A stretch of DNA of 48,496 bases. Source: Collimonas sp. OK607. GTDB taxonomy: Bacteria > Pseudomonadota > Gammaproteobacteria > Burkholderiales > Burkholderiaceae_D. Positions 4,071 to 5,895 of this stretch are shown here, piece by piece (the stretch's first letter is position 1; the number at the start of each line of letters is the position of its first letter). The stretch lies in assembly GCF_900111995.1 (NCBI RefSeq), contig NZ_FOKF01000035.1, positions 1 to 48,496 of the forward strand, in the 5' to 3' direction. Both the position numbers and the translations under genes were made by a program. The notes under the pieces are model-generated. The model had not been told where the DNA came from, searched no databases, and was given only the letters and a program-made list of their open reading frames with translations.

Positions 4071-4640
4071 TCAAGCAGTCTGATTGCGCTTTGCGATCCG
4101 TGTTCGTACATCTTGTACATCGACCGGATCGCAACGCAGTTCCAGCAACTGGTTGACGGCAATCTCATCGGCCAGTGAAGTTGCTGTCACCTTGGCGCCG
4201 AAAAAATCTGCATCCAGGCTGAGTGCATTACAAATGCGCTTGCGGCCTTGCTCATCGGCTGGCAGCTGCAGCACCACCGTCAGATAATTTGTTGCGACGC
4301 CTTCGACTGCGTTCTGTTTAAAGATCATCGCCGGCACTGCCTGAGATGGCGCAGACGCAATTTCTACAGGAATGCTTGCATGCTGTTCCTCTGCAATTTC
4401 ATCCACAGACACCAGCACAGTGCTATGCGGACCCGGCCACTTCTTGACGCCGCCAATCACGGCTGGCGTACCGCCGCTGACCTCATATTCGGTTTCGGAA
4501 ATCTTCTCGTAATGAAAAGGCTCCCAAGCCGGGTCGCCGTGCTTACGCATCGCCACCGTCTCCAGCACCTGGCTGGCGGGAGCGCCGTTGCCTAGCATGC
4601 CGACATCGCTTAGTCCCGTATCGGCTGTTGTGTCATCCAT
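4071..4640 (-). CDS. Hypothetical protein, third gene of the SOS-controlled nuclease unit
   Basis: A 189-residue soluble acidic protein with no signal peptide or membrane segment; I do not recognise a domain. Visible features are a central segment GDPAWEPFHYEKISETEYEV followed by GGTPAVIGGVKKWPGPHS and a C-terminal half rich in short helices and strands ending in a basic tail (RTRIAKRNQTA). It starts 29 bases after the 84-aa gene and is on the same strand as the nuclease, so the three probably share one transcript. Its 3' end converges on kynA with 24 bases between them. A role as partner, chaperone or immunity factor for the nuclease is possible but rests only on position. Confidence 0.65.
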   Translation of the reverse strand: MDDTTADTGLSDVGMLGNGAPASQVLETVAMRKHGDPAWEPFHYEKISETEYEVSGGTPAVIGGVKKWPGPHSTVLVSVDEIAEEQHASIPVEIASAPSQAVPAMIFKQNAVEGVATNYLTVVLQLPADEQGRKRICNALSLDADFFGAKVTATSLADEIAVNQLLELRCDPVDVQDVRTRIAKRNQTA

Positions 4641-4669
4641 CTTGCTTACCTCATTGATTTTCCGCTTAC

Positions 4670-4924
4670 TTAAAACGGATTGCTAACCTTCACCACCGGC
4701 GCAACAGCCAGCACCTCAGGCAATGTTCTCGATTCAAGTTCTGCCACCACCTGGTTGATCAGCGCTTGCAGTGCCTTTGCCTGCTCCAGTCCACCCTGGT
4801 CCAGCGTCAGGTCGACATCGCCAAACAAGCTGACCCGGTCCAGCCGATTTTCAACGTTCAGCTTGCCGATAGAGAGAGTTGCGCTTTCATCGGCGAACGG
4901 AATAAATTTAGCCTTGTTAACCAT
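4670..4924 (-). CDS. Small conserved hypothetical protein coupled to the nuclease
   Basis: An 84-residue protein starting MVNKAKFIPFADESATLSIG, with a predicted strand-rich N-terminal half (LNVENRLDRVSLFGDVDLTLD) and a helix (GLEQAKALQALINQVVAELE), ending in VSNPF. Its ATG overlaps the nuclease stop by 8 bases (ATGGTTAA), which implies translational coupling and co-regulation. It lacks a signal peptide, so it should be cytoplasmic, unlike the nuclease. I have the impression of similar small proteins in accessory regions of Proteobacteria, but no function is known to me. A cytoplasmic inhibitor that protects before secretion is one idea only. Confidence 0.72.
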   Translation of the reverse strand: MVNKAKFIPFADESATLSIGKLNVENRLDRVSLFGDVDLTLDQGGLEQAKALQALINQVVAELESRTLPEVLAVAPVVKVSNPF

Positions 4925-5840
4925 GCGACCATCCTTTATGTATCAAATTTGTGACGAAATTGAGCAGTATTTTCAACGCATCATTGAATAACCTGGTCAT
5001 CAGATCCGTCTCTATCTTTTTAACCTGGGCGGCCGGTTCCTCGGTTCTTTCAGCAAGGTTCCTGCCGCCGCGCTGTCCCGCTCCCGCTTTAGGTAATGGC
5101 ATCGCTACGTCCTTGATGCGTTTCGGCACACCTGGCAGCAGATCGATGTGCAAGGTATTTTCCAGCTGCGTTACCGACAAAGCCTGATAGCTGGAAGTAT
5201 CCTCGTTCTTGATGAAATAAGCGGCGGCCTGCTGTCTCTTGGGACTATAGACCACTTTATAGATATAAGTCGGCACCAGCACATTGCCGATCTTTTGCAG
5301 ATCCTGGCCGAGGAAGGCCGGTCCGGTAATCACATACAGCTCACCTTCTTTCACCGCCAGCCGCCGTACCGCGCTTTCGATCTCGGCCCAGATATGGCGG
5401 TTGTTTTGCGGATTCTGCGGAATCATGTTGGCAAGACTAAAACTTTCATACTGCGAAGTACGGTTCGCCATGTCGCCGTTCGGGCTCATGTGACCGCGAT
5501 CGAAACCGGAACGCGCGTAGTCTTTCAACTCGGCGCGGCCATTGATCAGCAACGCGGGTTCGGGATGAAAGGAATTTTCGCGCGACAGCGTGCGGGCAGC
5601 GTCGATGTTATTACGCGTCAGATGTTCGGCCGACCATAAAGGAGTACGCGTGATACCTGAGTGCATGACGGCAAAAGCCTGGTAGCACAACTCCTGCGTC
5701 TGGCGCGCCAGCTTGTCGTTAAGGATTTCAGGAGCGCGGCCGGCGGCGTAATGCGAGGGACAATCAGTGGCAAAAACCGGAGAATTGAGGAATACAAGGA
5801 ATGACAGGGACAGCAGGATGTGACGGAACTTGTGCGGCAT
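4917..5840 (-). CDS. Secreted DNA/RNA non-specific endonuclease (NUC1 family)
   Basis: A 307-residue beta-beta-alpha-metal nuclease. Residues 1-24 form a Sec signal peptide (LLSLSFLVFLNSPVFA, cleavage before TDCPSH), so it acts in the periplasm or outside. The catalytic motif DRGH is at 114-117 (H117 the general base) and the Mg2+-binding asparagine lies in NPQNNRHIWAEIE (N146/N147), as in Serratia nuclease and EndoG relatives. The C-terminal 50 residues add a charged stretch (RTEEPAAQVKKIETD) and a helix. The promoter overlaps a LexA box (5851-5870), so expression is predicted to follow DNA damage. It is the first gene of a three-gene unit with two unrecognised proteins. Confidence 0.9.
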   Translation of the reverse strand: MPHKFRHILLSLSFLVFLNSPVFATDCPSHYAAGRAPEILNDKLARQTQELCYQAFAVMHSGITRTPLWSAEHLTRNNIDAARTLSRENSFHPEPALLINGRAELKDYARSGFDRGHMSPNGDMANRTSQYESFSLANMIPQNPQNNRHIWAEIESAVRRLAVKEGELYVITGPAFLGQDLQKIGNVLVPTYIYKVVYSPKRQQAAAYFIKNEDTSSYQALSVTQLENTLHIDLLPGVPKRIKDVAMPLPKAGAGQRGGRNLAERTEEPAAQVKKIETDLMTRLFNDALKILLNFVTNLIHKGWSHG

Positions 5841-5850
5841 TGTTCACCAA

Positions 5851-5895
5851 AACTGTATAAATACACAGTATAAGGTTTATCCTAAATCACTCCAA
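5851..5895 (-). promoter_or_regulatory. LexA (SOS) box over a sigma-70 promoter for the nuclease unit
   Basis: The 20 bases AACTGTATAAATACACAGTA (5851-5870) match the E. coli SOS consensus TACTGTATATATATACAGTA at 17 of 20 positions and have the required CTG-N10-CAG core (5853-5855 and 5866-5868). On the minus strand a -10 hexamer TATACT (5867-5872) overlaps the box, and a -35-like TTGGAG lies at 5890-5895 with a 17-base spacer. LexA binding would block RNA polymerase. The box ends only 10 bases before the nuclease ATG. Betaproteobacteria use the same LexA motif as E. coli. Confidence 0.85.

What the first reader, a model, noticed from the sequence alone, without database searches (positions are those of the whole stretch)
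4071..5895. SOS-controlled operon: secreted non-specific nuclease plus two unrecognised proteins
A 20-base LexA box matching 17 of 20 consensus positions overlaps the -10 of a promoter that ends 10 bases before a signal-peptide-bearing DRGH nuclease. The nuclease gene overlaps an 84-aa gene by 8 bases and is followed by a 189-aa gene. DNA-damage-inducible exported nucleases are typical of bacteriocin or competition systems, but neither partner is a known immunity or lysis protein. It could be a new damage-induced extracellular DNA degradation or weapon cassette. The LexA box and coupling are seen; the function is inference.
Basis: partly seen in the sequence, partly recalled or inferred. Interest (0 to 1): 0.75.

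Follow-up and report, generated by a model that had tools for sequence, protein, structure and literature searches.

The report
Exported nuclease with conserved small partner
A gene for an exported DNA- and RNA-cutting enzyme sits beside a tiny gene that follows this kind of enzyme in many Proteobacteria, probably a guard that keeps the enzyme harmless inside the cell; the DNA-damage switch in front of it looks like a local addition.

Summary
A LexA-type box (17 of 20 to consensus) lies 10 bases before an exported EndoG-like DRGH nuclease gene, which overlaps an 84-aa gene by 8 bases; a 189-aa gene follows. The interpretation needs re-weighting: the deep feature is the nuclease/84-aa pair, not SOS control. 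The 84-aa protein matches no Pfam, NCBIfam, PHROG or PADLOC model. The nuclease lies upstream in 102 of 105 partner loci (100 of 103 distinct). In one order, 14 of the 15 closest nucleases carry the partner and 0 of 35 remoter ones; on plasmids only 4 of 8 examined do. The partner lacks a signal peptide, has a predicted beta-beta-beta-alpha fold without significant PDB match, and ends in NPF/NPW wherever a nuclease is present. SOS control is local: intact CTGT-N8-ACAG in 5 of 14 genus loci, CTGG in 9; a box in 1 of 97 loci outside the genus. The 189-aa gene is a genus-level addition. Best reading, inferred: exported nuclease plus cytosolic guard, working like Anabaena NucA-NuiA or B. subtilis NucA-Nin with an unrelated partner. 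A bacteriocin cassette is not supported.

The parts
5867..5895 (-). Sigma-70-like promoter TTGGAG-17-TATACT (my reading)
   Evidence: Sequence; -10 region unchanged in 14 of 14 genus loci, -35 TTGGAG or TTGGTG. Not listed by the consensus scanner.
5851..5870 (-). LexA (SOS) box TACTGTGTATTTATACAGTT, overlapping the -10
   Evidence: 3 mismatches, none in shuffles; one of 7 such sites in the genome; right-half ACAG in 14 of 14 genus loci, left half CTGT in 5 and CTGG in 9.
4917..5840 (-). Exported DNA/RNA non-specific (EndoG/EXOG-like, DRGH) nuclease, 307 aa; signal peptide at about residues 1-25, C-terminal LP motif and amphipathic tail
   Evidence: PF01223 E 4.8e-46; PDB EXOG E 6.4e-18, EndoG E 8.7e-17; tail comparison.
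4670..4924 (-). 84-aa acidic partner protein, no known family, no signal peptide, C-terminal NPF; proposed cytosolic guard/inhibitor
   Evidence: No match up to E 1 in Pfam, NCBIfam, PHROGs, PADLOC; paired with the nuclease; model pLDDT 88.9, no Foldseek match at E 0.001.
4071..4640 (-). 189-aa acidic third gene of the operon; genus-level addition; C-terminal domain related to small phage and plasmid proteins
   Evidence: phrog_28801 E 4.8e-07; Pseudomonas phage hits E 0.005-0.01; Acinetobacter plasmid E 1e-5; found in 12 of 14 genus loci.

Best explanation
A two-gene unit: an exported (periplasmic or secreted) EndoG-type nuclease made together with a small acidic cytosolic protein that most likely binds and silences nuclease that has not left the cytoplasm, as a guard or immunity protein. 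Outside the cytoplasm the nuclease degrades extracellular or incoming DNA and RNA. In this genus the unit stands behind a promoter whose -10 overlaps a LexA-type box, so in strains with the intact box it would rise after DNA damage, and a third gene with a phage-like domain has been added. Shown here: gene order, conservation of the pair, lack of a signal on the partner, its acidity, the link between the NPF end and the presence of a nuclease, and the box. Inferred: inhibition, location, induction, and what the nuclease is for.
For: Pairing in alpha- (Azospirillum, Microvirga), beta- and gammaproteobacteria (Acinetobacter): nuclease upstream in 80 of 80 genome-contig loci, 14 of 16 order loci and 8 of 9 further phylum loci (two loci occur in two sets, so 100 of 103 distinct). 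Reverse test: partner in 14 of the top 15 nuclease places of the order and in 0 of 35 remoter ones. 34 partnerless nucleases form one supported clade (100/97). N-terminal hydrophobic stretch in 110 of 111 nuclease ORFs and 5 of 118 partner ORFs, repeats included. Partner acidic: median pI 4.74, 84 of 107 below 5. NPF/NPW end in 106 of 106 distinct partners beside a nuclease or nuclease remnant, 0 of 3 orphans. Precedent: the presumed inhibitor Nin is encoded beside B. subtilis NucA, and NuiA binds Anabaena NucA over its DNA site (PMC5758888, passages).
Against: No inhibition or binding was tested. Some close nucleases lack the partner: G129 and a second copy in G158, and 4 of 8 plasmid nuclease loci examined, so the partner is not strictly required. 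In three loci the partner stands without a nuclease (L021, L024 and the degraded L046). The nuclease cores are not uniformly basic (pI 5.2-10.0, 54 of 101 above 7.5), so charge pairing is weak support. No fold or sequence link to a known inhibitor. In an Acinetobacter record, a Cupriavidus plasmid and G158 another gene, or about 600 bases, lies between nuclease and partner.
Confidence: 0.5

Rival explanations
1. The 84-aa protein is a dedicated folding or export helper (SecB-like pilot) of the nuclease, keeping it unfolded and feeding it to export, rather than an inhibitor of activity.
For: No signal of its own, small, made with an exported client, tight gene coupling; the paired nucleases carry a C-terminal extension with a conserved LP motif (28-29 of 30 rows) that most of the 34 partnerless rows lack, a possible docking site.
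Against: Partnerless relatives also have export signals by family and exist close by. Acidity and orphan copies fit an inhibitor as well or better.
Confidence: 0.2
2. The pair is a barrier to incoming DNA (transformation, conjugation or phage), with the guard protecting the own cytoplasm; damage induction is a local refinement. (This concerns the nuclease's purpose and can hold together with the guard reading.)
For: Partner homologues occur in 48 plasmid records, 25 of them typed mobilizable or conjugative; one copy, with a shortened nuclease, lies between gmtY and a Hachiman locus, others within a few kilobases of a TIR-domain gene and a HipA gene. Prophage-borne DNases including the DNA/RNA non-specific nuclease CJE1441 are reported to block transformation in Campylobacter (PMC3995785, passages).
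Against: In the window's genus the pair is chromosomal and present in 14 of 15 genomes, and it is on many Massilia contigs, which suits a housekeeping or nutritional DNase as well. Neighbours on plasmids vary. No PADLOC match. Not tested.
Confidence: 0.3
3. SOS-induced secreted DNase for eDNA turnover or nutrient recycling after neighbours die; the partner is a minor accessory.
For: Secreted or membrane-bound non-specific DNases act on eDNA in other bacteria (Ralstonia NucA/NucB, PMC4919084, passages; whether those belong to the same family was not checked).
Against: Does not explain why the partner is kept across three classes; 96 of 97 loci outside the genus have no SOS box.
Confidence: 0.25
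4. Damage-induced weapon (bacteriocin) or suicide cassette.
For: LexA box over the promoter; exported nuclease.
Against: Pfam finds only the nuclease domain, no receptor or translocation domain; no lysis gene recognised in the operon; an N-terminal Sec signal is unlike colicins (recalled); 14 of 15 genus genomes carry it and most relatives lack a LexA box.
Confidence: 0.05

Closest known systems
Anabaena NucA-NuiA
   Same: DNA/RNA non-specific nuclease of the same superfamily with a protein inhibitor; NucA (2o3b) is found by sequence, E 4e-16.
   Different: The 84-aa protein has no match in Pfam, none in PDB sequences and no Foldseek match at E 0.001.
Bacillus subtilis NucA-Nin
   Same: Nuclease gene next to the gene of its presumed inhibitor (PMC5758888, passages).
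   Different: Different nuclease subfamily: the paper says that Anabaena NucA and its NucB, a 78% relative of B. subtilis NucA, share no significant sequence homology. Nin (4MQD) is not among the Foldseek rows shown, and no match reached E 0.001.
Drosophila EndoG-EndoGI
   Same: Closest solved nucleases are EXOG and EndoG, including 3ism; that EndoGI guards a compartment where the nuclease should not act is recalled.
   Different: Eukaryotic; no sequence or fold match of the 84-aa protein to any PDB entry.
Campylobacter CJIE2/CJIE4 nucleases (CJE0566, CJE1441)
   Same: DNA/RNA non-specific nuclease (CJE1441) and a similar DNase (CJE0566) on mobile elements, described there as extracellular or periplasmic (PMC3995785, passages).
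   Different: The next gene, CJE1442, is listed there as PLDc_N-like; in the passages seen no 84-aa partner is mentioned.
SNIPE
   Same: Membrane-located nuclease acting on incoming phage DNA (PMC13190303, abstract); a works-like comparison only.
   Different: A different defence protein; no shared domain was shown or tested.

Membership tests
DNA/RNA non-specific endonuclease (PF01223) | Domain match above the curated cut-off and DRGH motif | tested here: met
   157.6 bits against a cut-off of 23; DRGH at residues 114-117.
DNA/RNA non-specific endonuclease (PF01223) | Nuclease activity | not testable with these tools
   Needs protein.
LexA regulon | High-scoring box over the promoter and a LexA gene in the genome | tested here: met
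   the promoter itself is my reading.
LexA regulon | Box conserved among close relatives | tested here: inconclusive
   CTGT-N8-ACAG in 5 of 14, CTGG in 9 of 14 genus loci; five T/G changes on the tree; 1 of 97 loci outside the genus.
LexA regulon | Induction by DNA damage, LexA binding | not testable with these tools
   Needs experiment.
NuiA / Nin nuclease inhibitors | Gene adjacent to a nuclease gene | tested here: met
   Nuclease upstream in 102 of 105 partner loci, within 100 bases in 98 of these.
NuiA / Nin nuclease inhibitors | Sequence or fold similarity to NuiA or Nin | tested here: not met
   No Pfam match up to E 1, no PDB sequence match up to E 1, no Foldseek match at E 0.001. So it is not shown to be a member; it may still work alike.
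NuiA / Nin nuclease inhibitors | Inhibits its nuclease | not testable with these tools
   Needs protein.
Nuclease bacteriocin (colicin type; features recalled) | Receptor-binding and translocation domains and a lysis gene beside an SOS promoter | tested here: not met
   Only the nuclease domain found; no lysis gene recognised in the operon; the SOS-type promoter alone is present.
Known anti-phage defence system | Match to PADLOC models | tested here: not met
   No match up to E 1 for the three proteins.

The most novel reading that the evidence does not exclude
An undescribed, widely mobile nuclease-guard system of Proteobacteria: an EndoG-like nuclease stationed outside the cytoplasm, perhaps on the outer face of the inner membrane (13 of 30 paired rows have a strongly amphipathic C-terminal tail), destroys DNA on its way in, while an unrelated beta-beta-beta-alpha guard with an NPF tail, possibly entering the active site, protects the cytoplasm; some soil bacteria have wired it to LexA so that incoming or damaged DNA raises the barrier.
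Probability: 0.22. Interest if true: 0.75.

Novelty: new variant of a known kind. Interest (0 to 1): 0.5.

Why it matters
DRGH nucleases are mostly seen as lone secreted enzymes. A supported subfamily that carries its own small partner across three classes of Proteobacteria would add a new nuclease-inhibitor pair, give a role to a family that records name only 'hypothetical protein', and offer a compact system to test how exported nucleases are kept safe. The EndoG link also bears on how such nucleases were tamed before they became mitochondrial (speculation).

Tried and rejected
SOS control as the shared trait of the pair: rejected. The 189-aa gene as core partner: rejected; its structure model, made from a single sequence, is unusable (mean pLDDT 34.3). 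Phage origin of the pair: pattern-based scans of viral contigs with the 84-aa and 189-aa proteins confirmed no relative, which reaches close relatives only for single proteins; the 'Acinetobacter phage' hit lies among chromosomal-looking genes such as kup, hisF and thrB. Fold relatives of the 84-aa protein: no match at E 0.001 in PDB or viral models (50 rows of each shown). Papers: the listings of ten searches (one found none) and the passages or abstract read of six papers showed no description of this nuclease/84-aa pair; that library lacks most subscription journals and bioRxiv preprints.

Weak points of my own counts. The first script for partners beside nucleases missed three (L131-L133) because of a limit on where the reading frame begins; a re-check without that limit gives 14 of 50 with a partner. 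One of 51 nuclease places (G384, a fragment) was not examined. In one search L037 was printed as unpaired because of a similar limit; one search shows it paired, 3 bases apart. The 105 partner loci hold two repeats. The 80 genome-contig loci are the best of 221 relatives, found with one peptide pattern and nearly all from one family, so they are close kin, not independent. Four partner loci (L025, L028, L030, L031) sit beside nuclease frames without DRGH, that is shortened or broken genes. The tree holds one row (L030) from one frame of a broken gene, with a branch of about 7; it carries no weight; the labels need three changes, not one. The controls are first-order Markov resamples. In one search one of eight genomes (G007) had one match to the reversed control. 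Recalled, from no call: the LexA consensus; that G007 (5,186,898 bases) is Collimonas fungivorans Ter331; that the E. coli dinG box works with a damaged left half, so CTGG need not mean loss.

Full report
What is there. On the minus strand a 20-base LexA-type box (5851-5870) overlaps a -10 (TATACT) and stops 10 bases before the ATG of a 307-aa nuclease (4917-5840). The nuclease gene overlaps an 84-aa gene (4670-4924) by 8 bases, and a 189-aa gene (4071-4640) follows 29 bases on. The box is the only match within 3 mismatches in the window, with none in shuffles, and one of seven in the genome, with none for the reversed control. Of the other six, one precedes dinB, one imuA, one (no mismatch) a PA0069-family radical SAM gene and one a DUF2471 gene; the last two I did not identify. 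A LexA gene is there with two boxes upstream at 5 and 7 mismatches.

How far the box goes. In the genus 14 of 15 genomes have the nuclease (the one without is 1.7 Mb); 14 of these 14 loci have the 84-aa gene and 12 the 189-aa gene (in L160 and L161 no match to it was found after the pair). The -10 and the ACAG of the right half are the same in all 14, but the left half is CTGT in 5 and CTGG in 9. On a tree of the loci this letter needs five changes, always between T and G. Among eight genus genomes searched for boxes within 3 mismatches, the site is listed in G765, G766 and G768 and not in G007, G764, G770, G775 and G776, which carry CTGG or further changes. Outside the genus, of 97 distinct loci with at least 200 bases upstream, one (L086) has a CTGT-N8-ACAG core, at 5 mismatches; resampled controls give on average 0.11 loci with the core and 0.01 with 5 mismatches or fewer. 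SOS control is thus plausible here, labile in the genus, and rare elsewhere.

The conserved thing is the pair. The window's 84-aa protein matches no model in four libraries up to E 1. By tblastn relatives are in 48 plasmid records; by genome search in 15 of 399 genomes of the order and, with a profile, in 15 of 398 of the phylum (six of them the same genomes as). A pattern scan of the species genomes gave 221 relatives, of which the best 80, nearly all Oxalobacteraceae, were kept. In all 80 the DRGH-type nuclease lies upstream, 77 within 100 bases; in the order set in 14 of 16, 13 within 100 bases; in nine further phylum loci in 8, all within 100 bases. The three without are two stand-alone copies (L021, L024) and one degraded copy (L046). 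Two loci occur in two sets, so 100 of 103 distinct ones are paired. All 106 distinct partners that lie beside a nuclease or a remnant of one end in NPF or NPW, give or take six residues; the three orphans do not.

The reverse test is clear in the order and weaker on plasmids. 47 of 399 genomes hold 51 nuclease places. Of 50 examined, the 15 that score highest against the window's nuclease have the partner in 14 cases, the other 35 in none. On a tree of 67 nucleases, 34 of 36 partnerless ones form a clade with support 100/97; the two others, L136 and L183, lie among the paired ones, and the labels need three changes. The paired nucleases have a C-terminal extension with a conserved LP (28 and 29 of 30 rows) that is absent in most of the 34 partnerless rows, and 13 of the 30 (two of them the same sequence) end in a linker and a strongly amphipathic stretch, among them the window's genus, Azospirillum, Microvirga, Acinetobacter and Cupriavidus. 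On plasmids, 4 of 8 nuclease loci looked at have the partner and 4 do not.

What the partner may be. A hydrophobic N-terminal stretch is seen in 5 of 118 partner ORFs against 110 of 111 nuclease ORFs. The partner is acidic (median pI 4.74, 84 of 107 below 5), while the nuclease cores have median pI 8.6 with a wide spread (5.2-10.0, 54 of 101 above 7.5), so the charge argument is weak. AlphaFold2 on 79 rows gives a confident beta-beta-beta-alpha model (pLDDT 88.9, pTM 0.72) without match at E 0.001 in the PDB or viral models. The nuclease is closest to EXOG and EndoG among solved structures. A cytosolic partner of an exported nuclease is best read as a guard, as with Nin and NuiA, which share little structure with each other (PMC5758888, passages). 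An export helper is the main rival.

What the nuclease is for stays open. Non-specific DNases of other bacteria degrade extracellular DNA (PMC4919084, passages; family not checked) or block transformation (PMC3995785, passages). The plasmid copies lie in varied surroundings, among them a gmtY-Hachiman region, a HipA gene about 1.7 kb upstream and a TIR-domain gene about 4 kb upstream, which fits a barrier to DNA but does not prove it. The weapon reading has no support beyond the box.

The third gene. Relatives of the 189-aa protein were found in 5 of 399 genomes of the order: two of the window's genus and three of another genus of the family, where the 84-aa gene was not found and no nuclease match lies in the loci held. 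Its C-terminal 70 residues resemble a small protein of Pseudomonas phages such as KPP25 (E 0.005-0.01), a PHROG of unknown function (E 4.8e-07) and a protein of an Acinetobacter plasmid (E 1e-5). It is best seen as an add-on of the genus with unknown role.

Noticed in passing
L169 (G000:C32:53758-53777): A 20 of 20 LexA palindrome lies 11 bases (from the CTGT-N8-ACAG core) before a PA0069-family radical SAM gene in the same genome.
   Followed up: partly
L170 (G000:C31:19236-19255): A 1-mismatch LexA box lies 5 bases (from its core) before a DUF2471 ORF (108 aa), a family of unknown function.
   Followed up: no
window 5851-5870 and genus loci L127, L128, L157-L168: One letter of the LexA half-site changes between T and G five times on a 14-leaf tree, never to A or C, while its surroundings hardly change.
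   Followed up: partly
L180 4715-4981 and L181 4459-4749: Orphan copies of the 84-aa family without a nuclease beside them have lost the NPF end.
   Followed up: partly
phage records H94-H102: Klebsiella phages of the K64-1/RaK2 group carry relatives of the nuclease, two of them annotated as periplasmic.
   Followed up: no
L031: On Polaromonas plasmid pPNAP01 a shortened nuclease frame without DRGH and the 84-aa gene lie between gmtY and a Hachiman locus.
   Followed up: no
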